Assembly (NCBI RefSeq): GCF_000255295.1
Contig: NC_017030.1
Span: 9,770,328-9,834,327, forward strand
Source of the DNA: Corallococcus coralloides DSM 2259
GTDB lineage: Bacteria > Myxococcota > Myxococcia > Myxococcales > Myxococcaceae
DNA: 64,000 nucleotides
Reading direction: 5' to 3'
Shown here: positions 6,498 to 62,682 of the stretch, one piece after another
Layout: every line of letters begins with the position of its first letter
How positions within the stretch are numbered: the first letter of the stretch is position 1
Translations under genes and position numbers: made by a program
Notes under the pieces: generated by a model
Seen by the model: only the letters and a program-made list of their open reading frames with translations
Databases searched by the model: none
Told to the model about the DNA's origin: nothing

Positions 6498-7388
6498 TCA
6501 GGCTCCGGCCGTCCCGGGTTCCGCCGGGCGGCTGGAGTCGCTCCGGGCCAGCACCACCACCGCCACCAGGATGAGCAGGCCGCCCAGGCCCTGCCGCAAG
6601 GACAGGCGCTCGCCCAGGAAGATGGCGCCCAGCACCACCGCCATCACCGGCTCCAGCGTGGAGAGCAGCGACGTGTTCACCGGGCCAATGCGCTTGAGGC
6701 CCGCGAAGAACGTGAGCATGGCCACCACCGTGGACAGCAGCGCCAGGCCCGCCACCGCGGCCCAGCCGCCCGGCGTCTGCGGAAAGGCCGGGCCCTTCAC
6801 CAGCATCAGCGCCCCGAAGGCGACCCCCGCGGACAGCGGGACGACGGTGCTCGCCGCGAGCGGCCCCGCCGGCCCCGCCACGCGCGCGCTGGACAGGACG
6901 TAGAGCGCGTAGATGACGGCCGACAGCACGCCCAGGCCAATGCCCAGCGGCTTCGCGTCCGGGCCGGGGTCCACCGTGAGCGCCGTCCCGCACAGGGCCA
7001 GCCCCACCGCCAGCCAGCGGCGGCGGCTCAGGTGCTCGCGTCCCAGGGCCACCTGGATGAGGGCCACCAGCGCGGGGAAGAGGTAGAGCAGCAGGGCCAC
7101 CAGCCCGGCGGACGCGTGCTGGAGCGCGATGAAGTAGACGCTGCCCTCCGTGAAGTAGCCCACCGCGCCCAAGCCCACCAGGCCCCACAGGAGGCGGCCC
7201 CGGGGCCACCTTCCGCCCTTCGCGACCATCACGCCCGCGAGCACCAGGCCCGCCAGCGTGAAGCGCAGGAAGAGCAGCGTGGGCATGTCCGTGCCCGCCG
7301 CGTAGGCCAGGCGCGCGAACAGGCCCAGCGCGCCAAAGGAGGCGCCGGACAGGGCGACGAGGAGGAAGCCGGCGGTGCGGGTCCGCAT
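6498..7388 (-). CDS. EamA/DMT family transporter
   Basis: A protein of 296 residues with ten predicted hydrophobic segments arranged as two EamA repeats (about residues 7-135 and 150-280). The second repeat has the characteristic 'GPVNTSLLSTLEPVMAVVLGAIFLGERLS'. Members of the drug/metabolite transporter superfamily export amino acids, purines and other small metabolites; the substrate here is unknown. ATG 7388 begins the first transmembrane helix ('MRTRTAGFLLVALSGASFGALG'); an extended frame upstream overlaps the rhodanese gene and is not used. The rhodanese gene lies 17 bp upstream on the same strand, suggesting a two-gene operon. Confidence 0.88.
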   Translation of the reverse strand: MRTRTAGFLLVALSGASFGALGLFARLAYAAGTDMPTLLFLRFTLAGLVLAGVMVAKGGRWPRGRLLWGLVGLGAVGYFTEGSVYFIALQHASAGLVALLLYLFPALVALIQVALGREHLSRRRWLAVGLALCGTALTVDPGPDAKPLGIGLGVLSAVIYALYVLSSARVAGPAGPLAASTVVPLSAGVAFGALMLVKGPAFPQTPGGWAAVAGLALLSTVVAMLTFFAGLKRIGPVNTSLLSTLEPVMAVVLGAIFLGERLSLRQGLGGLLILVAVVVLARSDSSRPAEPGTAGA

Positions 7389-7405
7389 GGCGCCCGGGCG
7401 CGCGC

Positions 7406-7687
7406 CTACCAGTTCTTCACGGAGCCCAGGTCGAACACGTCCGGGAAGCCGCCCTTGCGCAACAGCTCCGCGGCCACCGCGCTGCGGCCTCCCGCCGCGC
7501 AGTACACCACCACGGGCGTGCCCACCGGGCCGACCTCGGAGAGGCGCTGGGCCAGCACCTGCACGGGGATGTTGCGGGCGGCGTCCGGGTGTCCCTGCTG
7601 GAACTCCTCCGGGGTGCGCACATCCAGCAGCACCGCGCCCTGGGCGACGAGTTCGTGGGCCTTCTGCGAGCGTTCCTGAGGCGTCAT
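7406..7687 (-). CDS. Rhodanese-like single-domain protein
   Basis: 93 residues forming one rhodanese domain: 'GAVLLDVRTPEEFQQGHPDAARNIP' at the start and the active-site loop 'VVVYCAAGGRSA' with the catalytic Cys near residue 64, followed by 'AAELLRKGGFPDVFDLGS'. Such stand-alone domains carry sulfane sulfur or act in stress and sulfur transfer. There is no signal peptide, so it is probably cytoplasmic. The start at 7687 is the second ATG of the frame and begins directly with the family's N-terminal helix. It precedes the EamA transporter gene, possibly in one transcript. Confidence 0.88.
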   Translation of the reverse strand: MTPQERSQKAHELVAQGAVLLDVRTPEEFQQGHPDAARNIPVQVLAQRLSEVGPVGTPVVVYCAAGGRSAVAAELLRKGGFPDVFDLGSVKNW

Positions 7688-7773
7688 GCACCCATTCAAC
7701 CAAAGCCCGGGGCCCTGTCGGGCTGAAAACTGGAGGCCGCCGCACCGGGCGCTACAGTCCTGTAACGATACCC

Positions 7774-8289
7774 ATGCGACTCGACAAGCTCACCCTGCTC
7801 CACCAACTGTCCGAGCGGCTCCAGCAGAGCGACCGGCTGGCCCACCGCGCGGAGGCCGATGCCCGCGAGGCCGCCCGCAGCCTCGCCACGGAGTCCGAGA
7901 AGAAGGAGGACGGCCGCGCCGCCATCGAGTACGGCAGCCTCGCCACCGGCCAGGCCCAGCGCGCCCGCCGGCTCCAAGAAGAGCTCCAGGCGCTCACCGC
8001 CTTCAGCCAGAAGGAGCTGCCCCGCTTTTCGCGCCAGGGGCCCGTGGGCCTGGGCGCCCTGGTGGACTGCAGCACCGAGGATGAGGACGGCTTCGCCGAG
8101 CGCACCTTCTTCGTGCTCCCCGCTGGCGCGGGCACCGAGCTCACCGGCCCCGGCGGCGACGGCTTCCTCTCCGTCATCACGCCCAGCTCCCCCGTGGGCC
8201 GCGCGCTCCTGGGCAAGAAGGCCGGCGACACCGTGGAGGTGACGCTCGCGGGCGAGGTGCGCGAGTGGACGGTGCTGGAGGTCGCCTGA
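7774..8289 (+). CDS. GreA/GreB-like transcription elongation factor family protein
   Basis: About 171 residues with the two-part architecture of Gre factors: an N-terminal antiparallel coiled coil (about 1-75, rich in Glu, Arg and Ala) and a C-terminal FKBP-like domain ending in 'ITPSSPVGRALLGKKAGDTVEVTLAGEVREWTVLEV'. That 'SPxGxALLGKKxGD' block is the diagnostic Gre C-terminal motif. The tip of the coiled coil carries acidic residues ('ESEKKEDG') that could reach the RNA polymerase secondary channel. It could be a GreA paralogue or Rnk-like regulator rather than housekeeping GreA. The ATG at 7774 starts the coiled coil. Confidence 0.8.
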   Translation: MRLDKLTLLHQLSERLQQSDRLAHRAEADAREAARSLATESEKKEDGRAAIEYGSLATGQAQRARRLQEELQALTAFSQKELPRFSRQGPVGLGALVDCSTEDEDGFAERTFFVLPAGAGTELTGPGGDGFLSVITPSSPVGRALLGKKAGDTVEVTLAGEVREWTVLEVA

Positions 8290-8308
8290 GCGGAAGCCGG
8301 CGCCGCGC

Positions 8309-10063
8309 CTACTCGCTCTGGGTGGGCCCCGGCGCCGCGTGCGCGACCAGCCACTCCTCGGGGATGTCTCCCCGGGGCAGCTCCAGGAGGAACGTGGCGC
8401 CCTCCCCCGGCGTGCTCACGGCGCTCACCGTGCCGCCGAACGCCTCGACAATCTGGCGCGTGATGTAGAGCCCCAGCCCCAGGCCGCCGTAGTGCCGGTC
8501 GCTCACCGCGCGCTCGAAGCGCTCGAAGATGCGCGACAGGTCGTCCGGCGCGATGCCGATGCCGTGGTCCTTCACGGTGAGCCGCGCCAGCGAGCCCCGC
8601 GCCTCCACGCTCACGATGACGGGATGGCCCGCGCCGTACTTGAGCGCGTTGGACACCAGGTTCGTCACCACCTGCTCCAGCCGCAGCCGGTCCCACCGGC
8701 CCACCACCGGCACCGGCGCCTCCAGGCCCAGCTCCGTGCCGGCCTGCGCCGCCGCGGCGGAGAAGCGGTAGAGGATTTCCGCGGCCACGCTCGCCAGGTC
8801 CAGCTCCTCCAGCTCCAGCCGCAGCCGGCCCGCGGTGATGCGCGACACGTCCAGCAGGTTGTCCACCAGGCCGGACAGCCGCCGCACCTGGCGCTGGACA
8901 ACATCCAGCGCGTCCGCGACGCGGTCGGTGGGCACGTCCTTGCCCTCGCGCGCCAGCACCACCACCTGCTTCTGCAAGAGCTGCACCTTGAGGCTCAGCG
9001 GCGTGAGCGGCGTCTTCAGCTCGTGGCTCGCGATGCCCAGGAACTCGTCGCGCTGGCGCACCGCTTCGCGCGCCTCGCGGTACAGCCGCGCGTTCTCCAG
9101 ATACAGCGCGGTGCGGTGGGCCAGCTCCGTGAGGAAGTGCTCCTCCTCCGGGCCAAAGGACCGCAGCACGTTGGAGCGCAGCACCATCAGCGCGCCCAGC
9201 ACGTTGCCGCGCGCGCCCAGCGGCACGCTCAGGCAGCCGTGCGGCCCCACCTCGCGCAACAGCCGCGCGTGCTCCGCGTCCCGCGCGATGGCCGCCACGT
9301 GCTCCTCGGACAGGAGGGGCAGACGCCCCACCGCTCCGGACGCGAACACCGCGGGCAGCCCGCCCGGCACGGAGGCGTCCAGCGGATAGCGCGTGAGCAG
9401 GTCGCGCAACAGCGCGTGCCTTCCTGAGTCCACGTGCAGGGACGCCGCCACGCGAAGGACCTCATCGCCCATGGAGCCCGGCGCGCGGAGGACGAGCAGG
9501 GCCCCCTCCCCCAGCGTGGGCACCAGCAATTGGAGCAGCGGCTCCAGCTGCGCCTCCGCGTCCACCGACGTGCCCAGGAGCGCCCCGGCCTCCGCCAGCA
9601 GGCGTGACGCATCCAGCATGGACGCCGGCACGGCCTCCACGGCGTGCGTGCGCAGGAGCGCAGCGGCCACCTGCCCGTCCGCGGCCCGCACCGGCATTGC
9701 GTTGCAGCGCAACACGGCGCGTGTTCCATCTGGACGGAGCACGTGCCACAGGGACGCGTCCACCGGCTCACCCGCCAGCGCTCGCGCCAGCGGTGAGTCC
9801 CCCGGCGGCAACAGTGTGCCGTCATCCCGCACCCATTCACACCCAGGCAGGCGGGCGTGCTCGATGTGGAGAGGAACCGGAATGCCGAAGTGCGCCGCGG
9901 CTTGTGAGTTGAAAACAGTCACACGGCCCGTGCATTCAACGAGCACCACACCTTCAGCGTCCATGACGCGCGTCGACAGGGGCGGGCCGTCCCCGTCCGT
10001 CACGCGGGCCTCCGAGGCTGGAGAGGTGATGCCGGACATGCCAAGGCTTTCCGCATGCATCAT
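8309..10063 (-). CDS. PAS-GAF sensor histidine kinase (soluble)
   Basis: 584 residues without transmembrane segments. A PAS-like domain (about 25-150) is followed by a GAF domain (about 175-325, 'GCLSVPLGARGNVLGALMVLRS'), the HisKA dimerisation box 'FLGIASHELKTPLTPLSLK' with phospho-accepting His347, and a HATPase domain with N box 'VTNLVSNALKYG', G1 'DHGIGIAPDD' and G2 'GGLGLGLYITRQI'. I use ATG 10063 because GGGAGGCGGAG lies upstream. No response regulator gene is adjacent, so it probably signals to a distant partner. The gene diverges from the hybrid kinase at 10270, and the two may be functionally linked (inference). Confidence 0.92.
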   Translation of the reverse strand: MMHAESLGMSGITSPASEARVTDGDGPPLSTRVMDAEGVVLVECTGRVTVFNSQAAAHFGIPVPLHIEHARLPGCEWVRDDGTLLPPGDSPLARALAGEPVDASLWHVLRPDGTRAVLRCNAMPVRAADGQVAAALLRTHAVEAVPASMLDASRLLAEAGALLGTSVDAEAQLEPLLQLLVPTLGEGALLVLRAPGSMGDEVLRVAASLHVDSGRHALLRDLLTRYPLDASVPGGLPAVFASGAVGRLPLLSEEHVAAIARDAEHARLLREVGPHGCLSVPLGARGNVLGALMVLRSNVLRSFGPEEEHFLTELAHRTALYLENARLYREAREAVRQRDEFLGIASHELKTPLTPLSLKVQLLQKQVVVLAREGKDVPTDRVADALDVVQRQVRRLSGLVDNLLDVSRITAGRLRLELEELDLASVAAEILYRFSAAAAQAGTELGLEAPVPVVGRWDRLRLEQVVTNLVSNALKYGAGHPVIVSVEARGSLARLTVKDHGIGIAPDDLSRIFERFERAVSDRHYGGLGLGLYITRQIVEAFGGTVSAVSTPGEGATFLLELPRGDIPEEWLVAHAAPGPTQSE

Positions 10064-10269
10064 GGTGTCATCTCCGCCTCCCGGGAAGAAAGGAAGACAG
10101 GACCCGCAGCCCACTCCATCCTCAAGGACAGGGAATGCTTCCCATCCTCACGCTCTTCCCGCGGGCCCCCTTGCCTGCATGACGGCGATCCTCAATCGTT
10201 CGACTGTCTACGTCCGCGCCGTGCACGTTCCGTCCGCACGGCCAAGTTCTTCCACCGCGAGTCCTCCGC

Positions 10270-13116
<2,847 letters not shown>

Positions 13117-42648: not shown

Positions 42649-42787
42649 CGTGGCTCCTTGGGAACGTGAAACCTCATGCGCGGAGCAAGGCCTGGACCAG
42701 GAAGGCTGCTCAAGGATTCCGCGCGCTTGGCGGCTGGAGGTTGCCTCGGAAATCTGATGCCGCCTCGAATCCCTGGCGGCACACGCC

Positions 42788-43276
42788 TCAGCGGAACTCG
42801 TCCACGATGTACATGCCCGCGCGCGGTGCGTTGAGGATCGCCGTTCCTGGCTTTGACTCGGGACGCTTGCGCAGTTGCCCAAAGCCGAGCCTCGCCACCG
42901 CGCAGATGGGCACGCGATCCTTTCCCTTCAGGAACTGGGCTTCGTAGTACCGGATGACCGGCTGAGCACCACCCGTCCACACGCGGCCATACAGCCGGAG
43001 CGGCGCCTCCAACGTGCCGACGTCCTGATCCAGTATGCTCTCGAGGGGCCCGTCATGCAGCGTGATGGACTCCGCCCGACTCTGGTTCGCGTCGAGCTGT
43101 ACCCATGCGGACTCCCCCACATACAGGCGCAGGTATCGCATGACCTCCAGCGCCTTCTCCGGGCACTTCTCCGCCATGGGGGTGCCATCCGAGCGAAGCC
43201 GGACGTCACCCGGTACCGTTGCACAACCCAGCGGCAGCCCCATCAAGCCCACGAGCACGTATTGGCGGGGAGTCAT
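42788..43276 (-). CDS. Predicted lipoprotein, downstream copy of tandem pair
   Basis: 162 residues. The signal 'VLVGLMGLPLGC' has its lipobox Cys near residue 18. The mature part 'CPEKALEVMRYLRLYVGESAWVQLDANQSRAE' and the C-terminus 'FLKGKDRVPICAVARLGFGQLRKRPESKPGTAIL' are nearly identical to the gene at 43412-43909, so the two arose by tandem duplication (repeat offset about 624 bp). No known domain. It is likely in one transcript with DUF2381 and the sister copy. Confidence 0.8.
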   Translation of the reverse strand: MTPRQYVLVGLMGLPLGCATVPGDVRLRSDGTPMAEKCPEKALEVMRYLRLYVGESAWVQLDANQSRAESITLHDGPLESILDQDVGTLEAPLRLYGRVWTGGAQPVIRYYEAQFLKGKDRVPICAVARLGFGQLRKRPESKPGTAILNAPRAGMYIVDEFR

Positions 43277-43285
43277 GCGGCGTTC

Positions 43286-43374
43286 CTACTCGCCCAGCAG
43301 GGCCGGATCCAACTGAACAATGGCCTGCAGAAGCTCATCCTGCCGGTACAGCTCCAGCCGCAGGGCGGTCAAAC
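43286..43374 (-). pseudogene. 3' fragment of a DUF2381 gene left by tandem duplication
   Basis: Between the two lipoprotein copies, the minus strand encodes 'LTALRLELYRQDELLQAI' and 'VQLDPALLGE' before TAG at 43286-43288. This matches the C-terminus of the intact DUF2381 protein at 43920 ('LTSLYLELYRHDGLRQAI', 'VELSPSLLGK'). The similarity stops at about 43374, where the sequence joins 'AATCTGATGCCGCC', which is also found at 42751 after the other lipoprotein copy. This is the duplication junction. The fragment has no start and is not expected to be expressed as a protein. Confidence 0.85.
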
Positions 43375-43411
43375 AATCTGATGCCGCCTCGAATCCCTGG
43401 CGGCACACGCC

Positions 43412-43909
43412 TCAGCGGAACTCGTCCACAATGTACACGCCCGCACGCGGGGAGTTGAGGATCGCCGTTCCTGGCTTGGACTCGGGCCGCTTGCGCAGCT
43501 GCCCGAAGCCGAGCCTCGCCACCGCGCAGATGGGCACGCGGTCCTTTCCCTTCAGGAACTGCGCTTCGTAGTACCGGATGACCGGTTGTTCTCCGCCTGT
43601 CCACACGCGCCCGTAGAGGCGCATGGGCGCCTCCAACGTTCCGATGTCCTCGTCCAACACGCTCTCGATGGGCCCGTCGTGAAGCGTGATGTGCTCCGCC
43701 CGGCTCTGGTTCGCATCCAGTTGGACCCACGCGGCTTCGCCCACATAGAGCTGCAGGTACCGCATCACTTCCAGCGACTTCTCCGGGCACTTCTCCGACA
43801 TGGGCGTTCCATCCGCATGAAGGCGGACGTCGCCCAGGGTCGTCGCACAACCCGGATGAAGAACCAGCAGGCCCATCCAGGCCACGAGTACGTATCGACG
43901 CGAGGTCAT
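43412..43909 (-). CDS. Predicted lipoprotein, upstream copy of tandem pair
   Basis: 165 residues, with signal 'VLVAWMGLLVLHPGC' and lipobox Cys at about residue 22. It is closely related over the whole length to the copy at 42788-43276; the main differences are three extra residues in the signal and scattered substitutions such as 'VGEAAW' for 'VGESAW'. It starts 10 bp after the DUF2381 stop, so translation is probably coupled with it. As the copy next to the intact DUF2381 gene it is likely the ancestral locus. Function unknown. Confidence 0.82.
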   Translation of the reverse strand: MTSRRYVLVAWMGLLVLHPGCATTLGDVRLHADGTPMSEKCPEKSLEVMRYLQLYVGEAAWVQLDANQSRAEHITLHDGPIESVLDEDIGTLEAPMRLYGRVWTGGEQPVIRYYEAQFLKGKDRVPICAVARLGFGQLRKRPESKPGTAILNSPRAGVYIVDEFR

Positions 43910-43919
43910 GCGGCCGTTC

Positions 43920-44843
43920 CTACTTCCCGAGCAAGCTCGGGCTCAATTCAACAATGGCCTGCCGCAACCCATCGTGCCGGTACAGCTCCAGGTACAGGGA
44001 GGTCAGGGTCCCGCCGTCCACGAACGCGCTCCCGTCCACCACGAGCCCGATGACACCCGAGGTCCCAGGTTCAATCACCGCGGAGGATGACCGGACCGCC
44101 AGCGGCCGCTCGCGCGTGTCCGACCTGCCCACGAGCCGCACGGAGCTCATGCTCCACGGACGCCGAGCGCTCAGGTTCTTCACCTTGAACACGACCGCTG
44201 CCTTGCCAGTGCCCCGGTAGACGGTGCCATCCAGTGCCGTGTCGCCATCCGTGCCGGAGAAATGATCCGCGACACCGAAAGGCGTCTGCGCCACCGCGCC
44301 CGTGGTCAGCAGGGCCGCCAGCGCATGGTCCTCGGAGGACTCCTCCTTGCGGAAACGCTCGTTCTCCGCGCGAAGGGTCTTGTTCTCCTTCTCCGAGTCC
44401 ACCAGCGCCGAGGCCATGGCCTCGTAGCCATCCCGGTCCTCGTAGACGTTGAGCTGTTGGTCCGCGCCCCCATGCTCGCGCCGCCCCGGAGGCCGGAGGA
44501 GGAAGGGAACCTCCCGCGCATCCGACAACGTGACGAGCAGGGAGAAGCCCTCCTCCGGTGCCAGGTCGCGCCGGGGCTCCAGCACCACCTTCCTGCCCAC
44601 GACGCCCACCGGTTCGAACCGCCCCTCTCCACCCACCAACCGCGCCCGGAGCGGCGCGAGGTCCTGCTCGAAGCGGAGGACCGTCACGACCTGCCCCTTC
44701 ACGTAGATGCGCTGGGGCGCGGCCTCGGGCTGCTCGGGGAGGAAGAGCGTCCGGATGACGGCGTGCTCGTGCTCCTCCGCCACAGCCGCTCCAGCGAGCA
44801 GCGTCCCGAGCAACGCCCACGTCCCAGGTAGAGCGATTCGCAT
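43920..44843 (-). CDS. DUF2381 family protein (myxobacterial paralogous family)
   Basis: 307 residues with a cleavable signal peptide ('WALLGTLLAGAAVAEEHEH'). The mature protein has the DUF2381 layout: 'RIYVKGQVVTVLRFEQDL', 'VVGRKVVLEPRRDLAPEEGFSLLV', a central helical/coiled segment ('SEKENKTLRAENERFRKEE') and a beta-rich C-terminus ('GTGKAAVVFKVKNLSARRPW', 'GVIGLVVDG'). The family is known almost only from myxobacteria, usually next to serine/threonine kinase genes or lipoproteins; function is not established. It heads a set with the tandem lipoproteins downstream. Confidence 0.85.
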   Translation of the reverse strand: MRIALPGTWALLGTLLAGAAVAEEHEHAVIRTLFLPEQPEAAPQRIYVKGQVVTVLRFEQDLAPLRARLVGGEGRFEPVGVVGRKVVLEPRRDLAPEEGFSLLVTLSDAREVPFLLRPPGRREHGGADQQLNVYEDRDGYEAMASALVDSEKENKTLRAENERFRKEESSEDHALAALLTTGAVAQTPFGVADHFSGTDGDTALDGTVYRGTGKAAVVFKVKNLSARRPWSMSSVRLVGRSDTRERPLAVRSSSAVIEPGTSGVIGLVVDGSAFVDGGTLTSLYLELYRHDGLRQAIVELSPSLLGK

Positions 44844-55730: not shown

Positions 55731-55759
55731 AAAACCTGTCCGACTGTCGGACAGGTTTT
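55731..55759. repeat. Palindromic repeat, copy 1 (possible bidirectional terminator)
   Basis: AAAACCTGTCCGAC (55731-55744) and GTCGGACAGGTTTT (55746-55759) are perfect 14-bp arms around one base. It has runs of A before and T after, so it could terminate transcription in both directions. It lies 43 bp after the R3H/AAA gene. Confidence 0.75.
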
Positions 55760-55791: not shown

Positions 55792-55817
55792 AACTTGTCC
55801 GACTGTCGGACAGGTTT
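55792..55817. repeat. Palindromic repeat, copy 2
   Basis: The core TTGTCCGAC/GTCGGACA is the same as in copy 1 (TGTCCGACTGTCGGACA is shared exactly), with one mismatch near the left end (AACTTG for AACCTG). Both copies are followed by TTTGGACC. Spacing between copies is about 60 bp. Confidence 0.75.
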
Positions 55818-56004
55818 GGACCGGGCGGGCCCGGACAGGGCCGCCCCTGGGTGCGCAGCGGGCTGCACACGGGGCCTGGGGTCATGGGAGCCCCTTCCCC
55901 TGTGAGTTCGCGGGGTTGAGGGGGGCATGACGGTTGCTGAAGGCTCGGGGTACGGTCCCTCGCGATGGCGCGGGGGGAGCCGCACCGTCTTTCCGGAGAC
56001 CTTC

Positions 56005-56814
56005 ATGCGCCGCATTGCCTTCGCCGCCCTCGCCGCCCTCGCCACCACCGCCTGTGGGGACAACCTGCCCACGCAGGAGGAGATAGACGACGCGAAGGCC
56101 CGCGTGGAGCGCCTCGCGGCCTCCACGCACCAGGTGCGCGGCGCGTTCGAGATGCTGGGCCTGATGCCCGTGTACACGTGCGGCGAGCCCCGGAGCTCGT
56201 TCCTCACCCAGGCCGTGAAGGGGCTGAGCGCCTCGGTGACCTGCGCGACCTTCCGGGTGCAGGCCGTGGACGACGTCACCGACTCCGTCGTCGTGTCCTT
56301 CCCGTCCAACGGCTGTGACGTGCACGGCCTGCGCTTCACCGGAAGCGCGGTGCTGGAGTACCGCGGCGGCCAGGACCTGATGGAGATGAAGGCGGACCTG
56401 CGCGAGCTGGCCGTGGATGGCCAGACGCTCCAGGCGAAGGTGGGCTACGGCACGTGCTCGGACGAGACGCGTCTGTTCGCGGAGGTCGAAGGCCAGGTGC
56501 CCGGCCGCGAGGGCCACGGCTTCCACATCAACAGCACCGTGGGGAAGCGCGACGGGCTGCCCATCATCGGCGGCTCGTCGCTGGTGTTCGACGGTCCGGG
56601 CGAGCTGACGGGTCCGAACGGCACGGACCGCATCACGCTCACGTCGCTCGAATATGAAGTGGGCAACTACCTTCCCAAGGAAGGCACGGCCCTGGTGGAG
56701 ACCGCGAGCGGACACCGCCTGAGCTTCGCGTTCCAGCCGGTGCTGTGGCGCGTGGGCAAGGTGGAGGTCACCGTGGACGAGAAGGACCCGGTGACCGTGC
56801 CCGTCGTGCGCTGA
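56005..56814 (+). CDS. Predicted lipoprotein, unknown function
   Basis: About 269 residues. The signal 'MRRIAFAALAALATTAC' has the lipobox Cys at about residue 17. The mature part starts with a helical stretch ('QEEIDDAKARVERLAAS') and continues with beta-rich sequence and paired Cys ('VYTCGEPRSS', 'SVTCATFRV', 'SNGCDVHGL', 'YGTCSDETR'). ATG 56005 is chosen over 55927 because the lipoprotein signal starts there. It ends 4 bp before the hflX 3' relic, showing that it was the convergent neighbour of hflX before the island inserted. Confidence 0.75.
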   Translation: MRRIAFAALAALATTACGDNLPTQEEIDDAKARVERLAASTHQVRGAFEMLGLMPVYTCGEPRSSFLTQAVKGLSASVTCATFRVQAVDDVTDSVVVSFPSNGCDVHGLRFTGSAVLEYRGGQDLMEMKADLRELAVDGQTLQAKVGYGTCSDETRLFAEVEGQVPGREGHGFHINSTVGKRDGLPIIGGSSLVFDGPGELTGPNGTDRITLTSLEYEVGNYLPKEGTALVETASGHRLSFAFQPVLWRVGKVEVTVDEKDPVTVPVVR

Positions 56815-56818
56815 GGCC

Positions 56819-56949
56819 TACTCCTGGAACGACCGGGTTTGCCGGGCGATGGCGCCCGGCAAACCCCGCACTCGCAGCCGGCTGCCCGTCTCGTCGTAGG
56901 CCTGGGACACCACGGTGGTGTGCTCGTACACCTCGCCGATGCGAGCCTG
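56819..56949. repeat. 131-bp direct repeat, left copy: relic of hflX 3' end
   Basis: This segment matches 61021-61151 over 131 bp with four mismatches and no gaps. In the minus direction it encodes the last 43 or so HflX residues ('RIGEVYEHTTVVSQAYDETG' onwards, ending 'RSFQE'), followed by a stop (56818-56820). The only predicted amino-acid change is Gln for Leu ('IARQTRSF' vs 'IARLTRSF'). Upstream of it the hflX frame is lost. It is the original gene end displaced by insertion and marks one boundary of the island. Confidence 0.92.
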
Positions 56950-57189
56950 TTCTCTAGCATTCGGGCAACCGGCCAGCCTTGTAGGCAATACGGCCCAAGC
57001 TCTAGAGACTTGGGAACGCGCTCGTTCAAACCAATTGTTCATCGACCGCGCCTCCTCATCCATGAGCGCTATTCCCCAGCCACGCTCTGGCGCCCCAAGT
57101 CATCCTCAAGAGGGGGGGGGTGGTTATCCACCCAGCAGATGAAGTCCCAGAGGCTTGCCTATACTCCTCGCCAGGAGGGACGCATCAGC

Positions 57190-59193
57190 ATGCTAACGAA
57201 GGTCAGTATTCGAAATTTTCGCCTACTACGCAATGTCGAAATGCTCTTCGACGAGCAATCCACACTCATCATCGGACGAAACAACAGCGGAAAAACATCT
57301 CTCGCAGAACTCTTTCGCCGCCTTGTAGAGGATGGAATTCCCGCCTTCACCTTGCAAGACTTCTCATTAGACACTCACGAGGAGTTCTGGAATGCATATC
57401 TCCTCAGCACACAAGGCCAGCTAGACAAGGCCCGAGACACCCTTCCCTCGATTAAAGTCACACTCACATTAAGCTACGATCAAGAAACACTCGATCTTGG
57501 ACACCTAGCAGACTTCATCGTTGACCTTAATCCTGAATGCTCAGAGGTCCAGATTGAGATCACCTACGCACTTATCCCGGAAAAGGCGAAGCCGTTCTTC
57601 GAAACGCCAGCAACAACTCATGAGCAACCACCTCCAGACAAAGCGCTTTTTTTCCGAACCCTCAAGGAGCGACTGCCTCACCACTTCAGGTGCACGCTCG
57701 CATCGGTCGACCCTAACGACGCAACGAACCGCAAGCACATAGAGTGGTCAAAACTACGCCTACTAGTTCAAGGCAATTTCATCAGCGCCCAGCGCGGCCT
57801 GGACGACATAACGCACAAAGAAAACGACACTCTAGGGAAAATATTAAACTCCCTCTTCAACACCGCAGAATCGGAATCAGCTCACCAGGACGATCGAAAA
57901 ACAACACACGATCTGCGAGCAGCCGTCAGCGACATCCAAGCCAAGCTCGACACCGGCTTCAACGAAAAACTCAAGAACCTACTCCCAGCAATCAACATGT
58001 TTGGGTACCCTGGACTAGCAGACCCCAACATTCTCACCGAAACCCTACTAGACGTCGGTCTGCTTTTAAGAAACAACACAAAAATACGATATTCAGGCAA
58101 CAACGGAGTGCATCTACCGGAATCATACAATGGCCTAGGCACAAGAAACTTAATCTACATCCTCCTAAAGCTTCTTGAGGCATTCAAGACATTCGAGGCC
58201 AAACCAACAACACCAAGCGCACACGTCATATTCATTGAAGAGCCAGAAGCGCATTTGCATCCACAAATGCAGGAAGTTTTCATCAAGCAACTTGCACTCC
58301 TGTCGGAAATGTTCACCAAGAAGTCCAATCTCACAGGCAAGTGGCCAGTCCAATTCGTGGTGTCAACACACTCCTCCCACATCACAAACAAGGTTTCTTT
58401 TGAGGCAATGCGCTACTTCCTCCCTGCCTCGGGGATTCCCGGCGCGCCAGCCACTACGACAAAAATCAAAGACCTAAAGAAGGGCCTTAAAGAAATTCCA
58501 ACCAAAGATCAGGAATTCCTTCACCAATACCTAACCTTGACTCGATGCGATCTTTTGTTTGCCGACAAGGCCGTGCTCATTGAAGGGACGGCTGAACGGC
58601 TCATGATGCCCCGCATCATTGAGAAGCTCGATGCTCAGCTAGCCGCTAGTCAAGGCCTCGGCCGCCAATACGTATCGATCGTAGAGGTTGGCGGGGCCTA
58701 CGCACATAAGTTCTTGGGACTGCTTGACTTCCTGGAACTCAAGACATTGATCATAACAGACTTGGACTCCGTGTCGGCATCACGAAGCATCTGTCCAGTC
58801 TCACAAGGGACGCTAACCAGTAACGCATGCATTAATCACTGGTTCGACAAGAGCTACTCCCCTGCCGAACTCATCCTCAAAACCGCCGAAGAGAAAACCA
58901 AAGGGCTTGTGCGATTGGCCTATCAAGTGCCCGAGCAGCCCTCTGGGCCCTGCGGCCGGAGCTTCGAAGACGCATTCATCCTTGCAAATCTCGCCATCTT
59001 TCCTGGCTGCCAAAACGATGAATCGCACGCGATGGACGAGGCAAGGCAAAAGAAGAAATCAACCTTTGCGCTCACATACGCCATCCATGAAACCAACTGG
59101 CACATCCCCCGATACATAGCAGAGGGGCTCAATTGGCTTGCCGCTAGCTCGACTCCAGTACATCCATCGGCAAAAATTCAGGTGGCAGCATGA
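57190..59193 (+). CDS. Gabija-like GajA: OLD-family ATPase/TOPRIM endonuclease
   Basis: 667 residues. ATPase domain: Walker A 'GRNNSGKTS' (29-37), signature region near 'YNGLGTRNLIYILLKLLEA', Walker B 'HVIFIEEPEAHLHPQM' (Glu350/Glu351) and 'FVVSTHSSHI'. TOPRIM domain: 'KAVLIEGTAERLMMPRI' with Glu465 and 'LIITDLDS' with Asp524 and Asp526, the metal-binding acidic set of OLD nucleases. In Gabija, GajA nicks DNA when nucleotides are depleted during phage infection. AGGAGGG precedes ATG 57190 and TATACT lies at 57160-57165. The stop overlaps the helicase start by 4 bp. It is longer than typical GajA (about 580 residues). Confidence 0.88.
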   Translation: MLTKVSIRNFRLLRNVEMLFDEQSTLIIGRNNSGKTSLAELFRRLVEDGIPAFTLQDFSLDTHEEFWNAYLLSTQGQLDKARDTLPSIKVTLTLSYDQETLDLGHLADFIVDLNPECSEVQIEITYALIPEKAKPFFETPATTHEQPPPDKALFFRTLKERLPHHFRCTLASVDPNDATNRKHIEWSKLRLLVQGNFISAQRGLDDITHKENDTLGKILNSLFNTAESESAHQDDRKTTHDLRAAVSDIQAKLDTGFNEKLKNLLPAINMFGYPGLADPNILTETLLDVGLLLRNNTKIRYSGNNGVHLPESYNGLGTRNLIYILLKLLEAFKTFEAKPTTPSAHVIFIEEPEAHLHPQMQEVFIKQLALLSEMFTKKSNLTGKWPVQFVVSTHSSHITNKVSFEAMRYFLPASGIPGAPATTTKIKDLKKGLKEIPTKDQEFLHQYLTLTRCDLLFADKAVLIEGTAERLMMPRIIEKLDAQLAASQGLGRQYVSIVEVGGAYAHKFLGLLDFLELKTLIITDLDSVSASRSICPVSQGTLTSNACINHWFDKSYSPAELILKTAEEKTKGLVRLAYQVPEQPSGPCGRSFEDAFILANLAIFPGCQNDESHAMDEARQKKKSTFALTYAIHETNWHIPRYIAEGLNWLAASSTPVHPSAKIQVAA

Positions 59194-60947
59194 CTGTTAC
59201 CACGCCAATTGACCCCGCTGCGGCAGCTGCCAACGAAGCTATTTCCAAGATTCGCGACTGCATAGATCTCGGTAAGAGCTTTTGCCTTGAGGCCGGCGCC
59301 GGTTCGGGAAAAACACACTCGCTCGTCAGCGCCTTGACCCACATAGTCGAAAAACGTGGAAGAGAGCTCGTAAGAAAGCATCAACAGGTCGCATGCATCA
59401 GCTACACCAACGCGGCCAGCAAAATTATTTCCGCAAGAACTGATGAACACCCCGCCGTCTTTGCATCGACCATTCACTCCTTCTGTTGGTCGCTAATCAA
59501 GGACTATCAGCCATACTTGCGCGCTGAACTATCAAACGCTCCCAATTGGACTGAACGGCTCACCACCATTGGCGGAATCGGGAACAGAAGCGTCGAATAC
59601 AATCTCGGTCATCCCGTCGCCAACAAGGAGGAAGCCAGCGTTTCCCTTGGCCATGGGGACGTCCTCAAGCTCGCGACAAAGTTACTAGGCAACAGCAAGT
59701 TCAGAAGACTGCTCGCATCGAAACATCCCATAATCTTCATCGACGAGTATCAAGACACCGACATAGACTTCATTGAAGCAATCAAGACTCACATCCTTGA
59801 GAAATCCAGCGGCCTTGTTTTTGGATTCTTTGGAGATCCGTGGCAGAGAATTTACGGGCGCTCTTGCGGAGCCTTCGATTCCTCGAAAATTGTCTCCATT
59901 CAACAAGGGGCAAACTTCAGATCACGTCCCAAAATTGTCGAGACACTAAATCGAATTCGTCCGAGCCTGCCGCAGTCCGTCCGTCCTCACGAAGAACGTG
60001 GTTCAGTCAGTGCTTATCATACCAACGACTGGGCTGGAGAACGCCAAACCGGCGCTCAATGGAAAGGTGACTTACCACCAAACATCGCTCGCGATCACAT
60101 CAGAGCAATGCGTTCCAATCTTGAGGCGCAGGGGTGGGATTTTTCCCCCAAACGGACAAAAATCCTAATGCTGACGCACAACGTCCTAGCTCAAGAGCAG
60201 GGCTACAGCGGAATAGCGCAAGTATTCAAAGGGCGGAATGACGACTATGCCAGCAAGGAGGACGATCACATCAAATTCCTCGTAGAGGTGATCGAACCAG
60301 CATGCCGCGCCTATGAGAAGAAACAATATGGCGACATGTTTTCTGCACTTGAGTCAACCATGCCAACCGTGCGCTCTCCTTCTGACAAGCAATCATGGAC
60401 GAAGGATATGGATATGCTGATAGCACTTCGAACAACCGCAACCATTGGTGCGGTACTAGACCATATAGCCGCAACAAAACGTCCACCATTGCCTGATGTT
60501 CTTGAAGGGAAAGAGCGAGAGTTCAAGAATACTCAAGTGGCGGACGATGAAGCCACCTCGTGGATGACCAGGCTTCGAGCTCTCCGACAAGTGCCTTACC
60601 GAGAGATAGTCGCTCTGGCGAACTTCCTCGATGCATCAACCCTCTACTCGACAAAACATGGGGTCAAAGGGGATGAATTCGAGAATGTACTAGTCGTCGT
60701 CGGTCGAGGATGGAATCTTTATGACTTCAATGAACTACTAGAACTCTCCTCCTCGCCAAACTCTATAAACCCTAAGCGAGCAGACGCCTACGAACGAAAT
60801 CGTAATCTGCTTTATGTAGCTCTCTCGCGCGCCAAGGTACGCCTTGCCGTTCTCTTCACACAGAAGTTGTCAAACCAAGCAACGGAAACATTGTCGTCTT
60901 GGTTTGGGGGAGAAAATGTTTATTCACTCAAACTCCAGGGCACCTAA
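59190..60947 (+). CDS. Gabija-like GajB: UvrD/PcrA-type helicase
   Basis: 585 residues, SF1 helicase: Walker A 'LEAGAGSGKTHSLVSAL' (GxGxGKT at 36-42), motif Ia 'QQVACISYTNAAS', motif II 'HPIIFIDEYQDTDIDFIEAI', motif III 'FGFFGDPWQRIYG', motif IV region 'NFRSRPKIVETLNRIRPS', and motifs V/VI 'STKHGVKGDEFENVLVVVG' and 'NLLYVALSRAKVRLAVLF'. In Gabija this partner binds GajA and senses or processes DNA ends. It is coupled to gajA by an ATGA overlap. Base composition is atypical for the genome. OLD class 2 pairs have the same layout, so Gabija is the best but not exclusive name. Confidence 0.88.
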   Translation: MTVTTPIDPAAAAANEAISKIRDCIDLGKSFCLEAGAGSGKTHSLVSALTHIVEKRGRELVRKHQQVACISYTNAASKIISARTDEHPAVFASTIHSFCWSLIKDYQPYLRAELSNAPNWTERLTTIGGIGNRSVEYNLGHPVANKEEASVSLGHGDVLKLATKLLGNSKFRRLLASKHPIIFIDEYQDTDIDFIEAIKTHILEKSSGLVFGFFGDPWQRIYGRSCGAFDSSKIVSIQQGANFRSRPKIVETLNRIRPSLPQSVRPHEERGSVSAYHTNDWAGERQTGAQWKGDLPPNIARDHIRAMRSNLEAQGWDFSPKRTKILMLTHNVLAQEQGYSGIAQVFKGRNDDYASKEDDHIKFLVEVIEPACRAYEKKQYGDMFSALESTMPTVRSPSDKQSWTKDMDMLIALRTTATIGAVLDHIAATKRPPLPDVLEGKEREFKNTQVADDEATSWMTRLRALRQVPYREIVALANFLDASTLYSTKHGVKGDEFENVLVVVGRGWNLYDFNELLELSSSPNSINPKRADAYERNRNLLYVALSRAKVRLAVLFTQKLSNQATETLSSWFGGENVYSLKLQGT

Positions 60948-61019
60948 GATAGCAACATCCCGCAGTTCTATTCACTACAGCTGCATCTTACGATGCTGTC
61001 TCCGCAGTACTGCTTGACG

Positions 61020-62495
61020 TTACTCCTGGAACGACCGGGTGAGCCGGGCGATGGCGCCCGGCAAACCCCGCACGCGCAGCCGGCTGCCCGTCTCGTCGTA
61101 GGCCTGGGACACCACGGTGGTGTGCTCGTACACCTCGCCGATGCGGGCCTGCCGCGCGTAGGGAATCACCAGGTCCGCCTCCACCATGGAGGCCTCGAAG
61201 AAGGCGATGATCTCCCGGCGCAGCCCGGCCACGTCATCTGGCCGGTGCGCGGACACGAGGAGCGCTTCGGGGTGCTGGGCCCGGAGCGCTTCCTGGGCCG
61301 CCGCGTCCAGCCGGTCCACCTTGTTGAACACCAGCTTGCCCGGCACCACGTCCGCGCCAATCTCCCGGAGCACCGTGCGGGTGACCTCCAGCTGCGCGGC
61401 CCAGGTGGGGTCGGACGCGTCCACCACGTAGAGCAGGAGCGACGCCTCCAGCGCCTCGTCCAGCGTGGAGCGGAAGGACGCCACCAGGTCGTGCGGCAGC
61501 TTCTGGATGAAGCCCACCGTATCTGAGACGAGGATGCGCGGCCGGGTCTCCGGCTGCATCGCGCGCACCGTCGTGTCGAGCGTGGCGAAGAGCTGATCCG
61601 CCACCAGCACCGTGCTGCCCGTCAGCGCCCGCATCAGCGATGACTTGCCCGCGTTCGTGTAGCCCACCAGTGCCACGCGCAGTTGGTCGCGGCGCGCGTA
61701 GCGGCGCTGGTCCTGGTCCTTCTGGATGGCGGCCAGGCCCTCGCGCAGCTCGGCCAGCCGGTCGCGAATCTTGCGGCGGTCCAGTTCGATCGCGGAGTCA
61801 CCGGAGCCTCGGCCCTGCTGGCGCTCGCGGCCGCCCGGGGCTTCGCGCAGACGCGGGGCCAGGTAGTTGAGCCGGGCGATCTCCACCTGCATGCGCGCCT
61901 CGTGGCTCCTGGCGTGCCGGTGGAAGATGTCCACGATGACGCCCGCGCGGTCCAGCACCTGCACGCCCGTGGCGCGCTCCAGGTTGCGCAGCTGGCTGGG
62001 GGACAGCTCGTGGTCCACGACCACCACGGTGGGCCTGGGGCCCGGCTCGATGGCGGTGGCCTCCGCGTCCGCGTCTGACTCCGGATCCGCGTCCGTGTCC
62101 GGGAAGGCGTCGTCGTCCTCGTCGGGCGGCTCGGATCCGGATCCGTCCAGGTCCGCGTCGCCGGGAGCGACCGGGGCGTCCGGGCCCTCGGGCTCCGCGT
62201 CGGCTTCAGCCTCCCACTTCTCGCGTGCCTTCGATGTCTTGCCCTGCGCGCCGGACGGGATGACGCCCGAGCCGCCGGTGAGCGCGGACAGCTCCTTGAG
62301 CTTGCCGGAGCCAAGCACCGTGCCGGTGGCCAGCCGCTGCCGGCGCTGGGACACGGTCGCCACCGCGTCGAAGCCCAGCGTGTGCACCAGCCGCTTCAGC
62401 TCCGCCAGGTCCGCGGCATGCGCCTCGTCCGTGACACCGGGAAGCTGGACGCCGACGAGGACGGCGCGCGGGCGCTCGGGAAGGGTTTTCGCCAT
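61020..62495 (-). CDS. hflX: GTPase HflX
   Basis: About 491 residues. N-terminal HflX domain with 'VQLPGVTDEAHAADLAEL', 'LGSGKLKEL' and 'VVVVDHELSPSQLRNLE', coiled linker 'DRRKIRDRLAELREGLAAI', then the GTPase domain with G1 'GYTNAGKSS', G2/G3 'DTVGFIQKLPHDLV', G4 'NKVD' and the C-terminal domain. HflX splits stalled or stress-hibernating ribosomes. An acidic, probably disordered insert of about 60 residues ('DEDDDAFPDTDADPESDADA') interrupts the N-terminal domain. The last about 43 residues come from the right-hand repeat of the inserted island. I start it at ATG 62495. Confidence 0.93.
   Translation of the reverse strand: MAKTLPERPRAVLVGVQLPGVTDEAHAADLAELKRLVHTLGFDAVATVSQRRQRLATGTVLGSGKLKELSALTGGSGVIPSGAQGKTSKAREKWEAEADAEPEGPDAPVAPGDADLDGSGSEPPDEDDDAFPDTDADPESDADAEATAIEPGPRPTVVVVDHELSPSQLRNLERATGVQVLDRAGVIVDIFHRHARSHEARMQVEIARLNYLAPRLREAPGGRERQQGRGSGDSAIELDRRKIRDRLAELREGLAAIQKDQDQRRYARRDQLRVALVGYTNAGKSSLMRALTGSTVLVADQLFATLDTTVRAMQPETRPRILVSDTVGFIQKLPHDLVASFRSTLDEALEASLLLYVVDASDPTWAAQLEVTRTVLREIGADVVPGKLVFNKVDRLDAAAQEALRAQHPEALLVSAHRPDDVAGLRREIIAFFEASMVEADLVIPYARQARIGEVYEHTTVVSQAYDETGSRLRVRGLPGAIARLTRSFQE
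61021..61151. repeat. 131-bp direct repeat, right copy: functional hflX 3' end
   Basis: This copy is in frame with hflX and supplies its C-terminus and stop (TAA, complement of 61020-61022; the relic has TAG). It is 127/131 identical to 56819-56949. The stop codon and scattered synonymous differences suggest the cassette brought its own version of the hflX end from a related strain. Confidence 0.92.
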
Positions 62496-62682
62496 GCATG
62501 GGCTCGTAACACGCCGGGCCCCGGGATGAGCGGGCGGGTGGGCCATTTCGAGGGCCCTGCTCGGCCCCCAGGGGGGCGGCGGTGGATATCCGGTGTTCGA
62601 CGCTCGCGGAGGGAAGGACCGGTGGATGGCTTCGTGCGACGGTATGCCTGAGCGCACCCGCTTTGATACGCACCGAGCCCCC

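What the first reader, a model, noticed from the sequence alone, without database searches (positions are those of the whole stretch)
56819..61151. Gabija-type defence cassette inserted into hflX, flanked by a 131-bp duplication of the gene's end, with no integrase
The direct repeats at 56819-56949 and 61021-61151 are 127/131 identical. The left one is a stranded relic of the hflX C-terminus beside its old convergent neighbour; the right one completes a new hflX frame. The interior holds only an OLD nuclease and a UvrD-like helicase with A/T-richer codons. Insertion that regenerates the target gene's end is the mark of site-specific elements, but no recombinase is present. The hflX 3' end may be an unrecognised integration hotspot for defence cargo in myxobacteria.
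Basis: partly seen in the sequence, partly recalled or inferred. Interest (0 to 1): 0.9.

Follow-up and report, generated by a model that had tools for sequence, protein, structure and literature searches.

The report
Gabija cassette in a duplicated gene end
A two-gene anti-phage cassette sits at the end of a housekeeping gene without breaking it, because 131 bases of the host's own gene were copied when the cassette went in; a similar signature surrounds some other defence and rival-killing cassettes in related genomes, and how they get in without a known recombinase is an open question.

Summary
In detail: 131-bp direct repeats (127/131) bracket a low-GC Gabija operon (gajA-gajB); the right copy completes hflX, the left is a relic. 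It is an insertion: 14 of 15 congeners have one hflX end, and in 12 of these hflX ends 3-53 nt from the lipoprotein gene. The exception, G008, carries another cassette (DUF6310 toxin-like plus DUF5953) between 132-bp repeats with nearly the same boundaries. The signature is not confined to hflX: 12 of 102 DUF6310 modules, a SitA5 toxin cassette, an OLD-nuclease cassette and 2 of 12 Gabija loci from other taxa are bracketed by direct repeats of 31-327 bp, unrelated between target genes. Seven insertions have single-copy counterparts in relatives. Both copies share states private to the host lineage, so resident DNA was duplicated. This fits the known 'insertion with long target duplication' described for restriction-modification genes, here extended to Gabija, OLD and kin-toxin cassettes. 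An att/integrase reading is not supported: repeats differ between genes, lengths vary, and the nearest tyrosine-recombinase match is 1.2 Mb away. Ku was found in none of 16 genomes, against classical end-joining. What makes the duplication, and why hflX was hit twice at nearly the same bases, remains open.

The parts
56819..56949 (-). left copy of the 131-bp repeat: stranded relic of the hflX 3' end
   Evidence: compared with 14 relatives all 4 differences from the right copy lie on this copy
56835..56866 (.). perfect 14-bp palindrome in the relic, a corrected quasi-palindrome of the native hflX end
   Evidence: sequence; pair I3; positions 109-110
56950..61020 (.). inserted low-GC cassette, 4.07 kb
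   Evidence: absent at this place in the 15 congeners
57190..59193 (+). gajA, OLD-family ATPase with TOPRIM nuclease domain
   Evidence: PADLOC GajA 2.7e-274; PF13175, PF20469
59190..60947 (+). gajB, UvrD-like helicase, start overlapping the gajA stop
   Evidence: PADLOC GajB 1.4e-243; PF00580
61021..61151 (-). right copy of the repeat: functional 3' end of hflX
61020..62495 (-). hflX, intact (491 aa), stop codon at the cassette junction
56005..56814 (+). resident convergent lipoprotein-like gene, neighbour on the left
   Evidence: no Pfam family

Best explanation
The Gabija operon entered this lineage by insertion with long target duplication. SHOWN: a 4.07-kb fragment without a recognisable recombinase lies in the hflX 3' end; the resident 131 bp from a glutamine codon of the C-terminus to the stop codon is present on both sides, so one copy keeps hflX whole and the other decays beside the old neighbour; the same kind of arrangement exists at hflX in another species with other cargo and at other genes with DUF6310/DUF5953, SitA5 and OLD-nuclease cassettes. 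INFERRED: the duplication arises when a foreign or intragenomic fragment is joined across two offset breaks, or by a polymerase that leaves the resident template, copies the fragment and returns upstream; the ends of the fragment are arbitrary. Selection then shows us mainly events in which the duplicated piece covers a gene end, because these leave both neighbours intact. The flanking repeats should allow exact loss by homologous recombination. The cassette itself should work as an ordinary Gabija nuclease-helicase system (family knowledge, not tested).
For: Single-copy sites: one hflX end in 14 of 15 congeners, 12 of them with hflX ending 3-53 nt from the lipoprotein gene; G009 and G011 have a recQ-like gene between, no repeat. 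G008: 132-bp repeats, 100% identical, different cargo. Both window copies share a state found in none of 14 relatives and all 4 differences are on the relic; in the SitA5 case both copies share 11 states absent in 8 relatives. DUF6310 modules: 12 of 102 have their own direct flanking repeat at >=50 bits against 41 of about 10,302 mismatched flank pairs; own inverted repeats 1 of 102. At >=60 bits 11 of 102 against 3 of 193 background pseudo-modules, Fisher p 7e-4 (L069 and L070 were left out of the background because they hold known cases). Joined single-copy sites contiguous in relatives for L144, L148, L173 and L070; OLD cassette L276 single-copy in G003, G006, G014. Gabija elsewhere: own repeats at >=60 bits in 2 of 12 loci, 0 of 132 mismatched pairs.
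Against: The two hflX insertions have almost the same boundaries (start within 2 nt, end within 1 nt), which random joining does not predict; at hflX and at the trehalase-like gene the repeat ends within 2 nt of the stop codon. 90 of 102 DUF6310 modules show no such repeat and 8 of 9 other OLD loci none at the threshold used (one of the eight, L275, is the same insertion as L276). Three background stretches also carry repeats. Some of the 12 are not independent: L196 and L197 are one insertion by descent and L199 is at the same gene. No donor copy with flanks was found, so microhomology at the joints was not tested. [quoted passage not shown]
Confidence: 0.7

Rival explanations
1. Campbell-type homologous integration: a circular molecule already carrying the cassette plus a piece of the target gene end recombines with the chromosome, giving repeat-cassette-repeat.
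For: Predicts exact gene reconstitution, same boundaries in different strains and repeats of fixed extent at one gene; a circle model was proposed for repeat-flanked transposed genes in Arabidopsis (PMC2869330, abstract and passages).
Against: The two hflX cassettes share no exact stretch longer than 15 nt, so no common vehicle is visible; both copies carry host-lineage states; it does not explain how the circle first acquired the gene end; no hflX end was found in viral contigs.
Confidence: 0.17
2. Site-specific integration by a recombinase acting in trans or lost later, with the hflX 3' end as attachment site.
For: Same boundaries twice at hflX and repeats ending at the stop codon; gene-end regeneration is typical of such elements (general knowledge); the wording of PMC4978471.
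Against: Repeats at different genes are unrelated apart from one 26-nt and one 20-nt match and 31-327 bp long; distances from cassette genes to the repeats vary; the nearest PF00589 match is at 8.61 Mb, 1.2 Mb away; no viral relative. Serine recombinases and transposases were not searched genome-wide.
Confidence: 0.1
3. Ku-dependent end joining of a foreign fragment at a double-strand break with long offset ends.
For: Would give random ends and filled-in duplications.
Against: Ku (PF02735) matched in 0 of 16 genomes of the genus, while the control found it in Bacillus subtilis.
Confidence: 0.02
4. Old duplication of the hflX end unrelated to the island.
For: None beyond the existence of two copies.
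Against: The genomes nearest by hflX, G012 (97%) and G014 (96%), have one copy and no island; both window copies share a G000-only state.
Confidence: 0.01

Closest known systems
Insertion with long target duplication (Nobusato et al. 2000, Gene 259:99; not read itself, seen as cited in passages of PMC1643837, PMC3031569, PMC4978471, PMC3154945)
   Same: Cargo bracketed by long, variable direct repeats of host sequence; one copy at the empty site; defence-type cargo
   Different: Described there for restriction-modification genes; here Gabija, an OLD nuclease and kin-toxin/immunity cassettes, often at gene 3' ends that are rebuilt, one target hit twice at nearly the same bases
Gabija anti-phage system
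   Same: GajA (OLD/TOPRIM) and GajB (UvrD-like) in one overlapping operon, full-length profile matches
   Different: GajA is only weakly similar to the solved GajA proteins (1.4e-6 to 2.6e-6 over residues 453-530); activity untested
SitA/SitI outer-membrane-exchange toxin cassettes of myxobacteria (PMC5562445, passages)
   Same: L070 cargo matches SitA5 (NF050093, 276.6 bits, cut-off 160) with an AHH nuclease end and an Imm11 partner
   Different: [quoted passage not shown] here a SitA5 cassette stands between long target duplications
Integrative elements in gene 3' ends (e14-like, recalled)
   Same: Target gene rebuilt by a second copy of its end
   Different: No recombinase in the insert, no common core between sites, variable length

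Membership tests
Insertion with long target duplication | long direct repeats of resident sequence bracket the insert | tested here: met
Insertion with long target duplication | single copy at the empty site in relatives | tested here: met
   14 of 15 congeners
Insertion with long target duplication | repeat length variable and sequence unrelated between target genes | tested here: met
   17 repeats compared; matches only within one gene, apart from one 26-nt and one 20-nt match; 31-327 bp as aligned blocks in the DUF6310 set
Insertion with long target duplication | movement observed | not testable with these tools
   sequence comparison only
Gabija | GajA OLD-family ATPase with TOPRIM domain | tested here: met
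Gabija | adjacent GajB UvrD-like helicase | tested here: met
Gabija | phage protection | not testable with these tools
   needs an assay
Integrase-bearing genomic island | integrase in or beside the element | tested here: not met
   the long frames inside are gajA and gajB; nearest PF00589 match 1.2 Mb away
Integrase-bearing genomic island | attachment core shared by elements of the family | tested here: not met
   hflX end not found in the viral contig collection; unrelated repeats at other genes
SitA family (G008 DUF6310 cargo) | match to a SitA family model | tested here: not met
   no NCBIfam match; so not filed as SitA, although it starts like a lipoprotein
SitA family (L070 cargo) | match to a SitA family model | tested here: met
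   NF050093 above its cut-off
SitA family (L070 cargo) | TraA-dependent transfer | not testable with these tools
   needs an assay

The most novel reading that the evidence does not exclude
Nuclease-encoding cassettes (restriction-modification, Gabija GajA, OLD, AHH toxins and the possibly nuclease-like DUF6310) move by a shared recombinase-free route in which a nick or cut by the cargo's own nuclease, followed by host repair without Ku, creates the long offset break; the hflX 3' end holds such a preferred cut, which is why two unrelated cassettes sit at the same bases.
Probability: 0.1. Interest if true: 0.9.

Novelty: new variant of a known kind. Interest (0 to 1): 0.62.

Why it matters
How small defence and toxin cassettes move without their own recombinase is an open question. 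This group of genomes offers at least seven insertions with single-copy counterparts in relatives, two targets that were used repeatedly, and no detectable Ku in the genus, so the joining mechanism can be tested. If the reading holds, insertion with long target duplication, reported for restriction-modification genes, also carries Gabija and kin-discrimination cassettes, in line with a common way by which anti-phage and anti-rival genes enter genomes without disabling resident genes.

Tried and rejected
Rejected or not supported: an att site with an integrase; Ku end joining; a known RNA element at 56000-62600 (no Rfam match at gathering scores); a tRNA target (none in the window); a common vehicle of the two hflX cassettes; hairpins as the common cause of the break (10 chosen repeats: by perfect-stem length 3 of 10 were matched by at most 5% of control windows, by folding energy 3 of 10 were at or below 1%); inverted repeats; fixed cassette ends. 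DUF6310 against solved structures gave only matches with E of 0.22 or more. Searches that did not settle the matter: the cassette's DNA in plasmids and GajA in phages (distant relatives only), papers on defence hotspots. Nobusato 2000 was not looked up itself; Furuta 2010 is not held.

Selection of material: one search covered 96 genomes of the family, 68 matched; 60 of these were fetched, leaving out the window genome and G040, G041, G049, G052, G081, G092, G095. One search found DUF6310 in 56 of 96 genomes; its list was cut short, and 100 of the listed loci plus L069 were tested. Modules with less than 300 bp of flank on one side were dropped, their number was not printed. L069 is one of the 12 and was the discovery case. 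L069 and L070 were left out of the background. In one search a third Gabija locus (L193) showed a weaker 98-nt match at 73%, which did not reach 60 bits.

The confidence of the main reading was lowered from 0.72 to 0.70, for the wording of PMC4978471 that I had left out.
Full report
WHAT IS THERE. The window holds two 131-bp direct repeats, 127/131 identical, at 56819-56949 and 61021-61151. In the complete 10.08-Mb genome this sequence matches only these two places, apart from a 32-nt self-palindrome hit. The 4.07 kb between them has a GC content near 0.5 against 0.7 around it and encodes GajA and GajB, full-length profile matches, with start and stop overlapping. hflX (61020-62495, minus strand) is intact and ends in the right copy; the left copy is a stranded C-terminus beside the convergent lipoprotein-like gene.

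IT IS AN INSERTION. All 16 genomes of the genus have the hflX 3' end. Two copies occur only in the window genome G000 and in G008. Of the 15 congeners, 12 have hflX ending 3-53 nt from the end of the lipoprotein gene; G009 and G011 have a recQ-like gene between them without a repeat, a gene that was also found elsewhere in the fetched stretches of 8 other congeners. The genomes nearest by hflX, G012 and G014, lack the island. In the order, 72 of 145 genomes gave a match to the HflX C-terminus and again only G000 and G008 had two. Against 14 relatives, all four differences between the window's copies are on the left copy, and both copies share one state seen in no relative. So the resident sequence was duplicated, and the stranded copy has been decaying since. 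Two adjacent changes in the relic turn an imperfect palindrome of hflX into a perfect 14-bp one.

THE SITE WAS USED TWICE. G008 has a 132-bp repeat, 100% identical, around 2.16 kb with two other genes: a lipoprotein-like protein with DUF6310 and a DUF5953 protein. Boundaries agree with the window's within 2 nt inside hflX and 1 nt at the stop codon. In both, the last base or bases of the hflX stop codon come from the inserted side. The two cassettes share no exact stretch longer than 15 nt. This coincidence is the main unexplained point.

THE SIGNATURE IS WIDER. DUF6310/DUF5953 pairs are a dispersed multicopy family: DUF6310 has up to 25 matches in a genome and occurs in 56 of 96 genomes of the family. 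Of 102 modules tested, 12 have a direct repeat between their own two flanks at 50 bits or more, against 41 of about 10,302 mismatched pairs; own inverted repeats 1 of 102. At 60 bits it is 11 of 102 modules against 3 of 193 pseudo-modules of the same size in other loci. The set includes L069, the discovery case, and L196 and L197, which are one insertion by descent because the intact copies share derived states that the relic lacks. Repeat blocks are 31 to 327 bp; in L144 and L196 two blocks suggest an original of about 720-750 bp with a deletion in the relic (my reading). Repeats at different genes are unrelated, apart from one 26-nt and one 20-nt match between L144 and L196, among 17 compared. 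Four further cases lie outside this family: a SitA5 toxin with an AHH nuclease end and an Imm11 partner in G009, 255-bp repeats; an OLD-nuclease cassette in G002, 88 bp, 94%; and Gabija loci of a Methylobacter genome (134 bp, covering the last part of a 337-aa frame to 5 bp past its stop) and a Methanobrevibacter genome (179 bp), 2 of 12 relatives tested with 0 of 132 mismatched pairs. For these last two no empty site was sought. Of ten OLD-type matches in the genus one is the window's GajA; of the other nine, one is bracketed at the threshold used (L276), and its counterpart in G000 keeps the insertion and a weaker left copy.

SINGLE-COPY SITES. Besides hflX in both species: L144, contiguous in 12 relatives and partly in G007; L148 in G004 and G002; L173 in G002 and G006; L070 in G011, 1260 bp at 87.8%; L276 in G003, G006 and G014, where left and right flank matches overlap by 76-80 bp, the single copy. 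That makes seven insertions with a single-copy counterpart. In one search other relatives matched only one flank of L148 or L173.

WHERE THEY SIT. In several cases the duplicated piece covers a gene end and one copy keeps that gene whole: hflX twice, a trehalase-like gene (L196/L197; NCBIfam trehalase score below its cut-off), a gene with an FDLDGT start region as in HAD phosphatases (L148, motif recalled), and both convergent genes of L144. In L070 and L172 it covers a gene start. At the trehalase-like gene, 14 loci from 12 genomes were read; six genomes carry a DUF6310 module at the gene's end (G008, G010, G005, G000, G012, G014), and in G005 a gene-end fragment and a further relic bracket another module, so this is a second recurrent target.

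HOW IT PROBABLY WORKS. No recombinase was recognised in the cassette; the nearest tyrosine-recombinase match is 1.2 Mb off; serine recombinases and transposases were not searched genome-wide. Distances from cassette genes to the repeats vary. Ku was not found in any of the 16 genomes. I therefore infer joining of an arbitrary fragment across offset breaks, or copying by template switching with return upstream; the corrected palindrome in the relic is one sign of template switching at this place, no more. Which of these is right is not shown.

WHAT IS KNOWN. 'Insertion with long target duplication' was named by Nobusato and colleagues in 2000 from two Helicobacter genomes and tied to restriction-modification genes; I saw this only as reported in passages of PMC1643837, PMC3031569, PMC4978471 and PMC3154945. 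PMC4978471 words one case as possibly site-specific. The full-text library holds 19 papers with the phrase 'long target duplication' (listing); none of their titles names Gabija or myxobacteria. A search from 2018 on combining 'target duplication' with Gabija and related terms found 143 papers with two of the terms; none of the 12 listed holds 'target duplication'. DUF6310 and DUF5953 did not occur in the one paper listed (two of five terms were required) nor in PMC12077131. The eLife paper on SitA toxins mentions prophage-like and other mobile elements, not target duplications, in the passages seen (PMC5562445).

VERDICT. It is a new variant of a known kind of insertion.

Noticed in passing
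window 55737-55753 and 55796-55812: Two copies of the perfect palindrome TGTCCGACTGTCGGACA 59 bp apart in an intergenic stretch.
   Followed up: no
window 42751-44005: Direct repeat of about 631 bp, 83% identical, nearly tandem, nothing to do with the cassette.
   Followed up: no
window 56835-56866: The relic carries two adjacent substitutions that perfect a quasi-palindrome of the native hflX end, as expected of hairpin-templated mutation.
   Followed up: partly
L064 about 7250-12628 (G003): About 5.4 kb between the AAA gene and the lipoprotein gene near hflX, a distance much larger than in most other congeners.
   Followed up: no
L070 12759-14294, L072 585-2132: A recQ-like gene lies between hflX and the lipoprotein gene in G009 and G011, elsewhere in the fetched stretches of 8 other congeners.
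   Followed up: partly
L185 4839-4972 and 10222-10354; L189 6692-6869 and 11499-11677: Gabija loci of a Methylobacter and a Methanobrevibacter genome bracketed by direct repeats of 134 and 179 bp.
   Followed up: partly
L069 8874-9788 and relatives: DUF6310 has a conserved D...FD...W(E/D)xKT pattern that resembles PD-(D/E)XK nucleases (motif recalled); no structure was predicted.
   Followed up: partly
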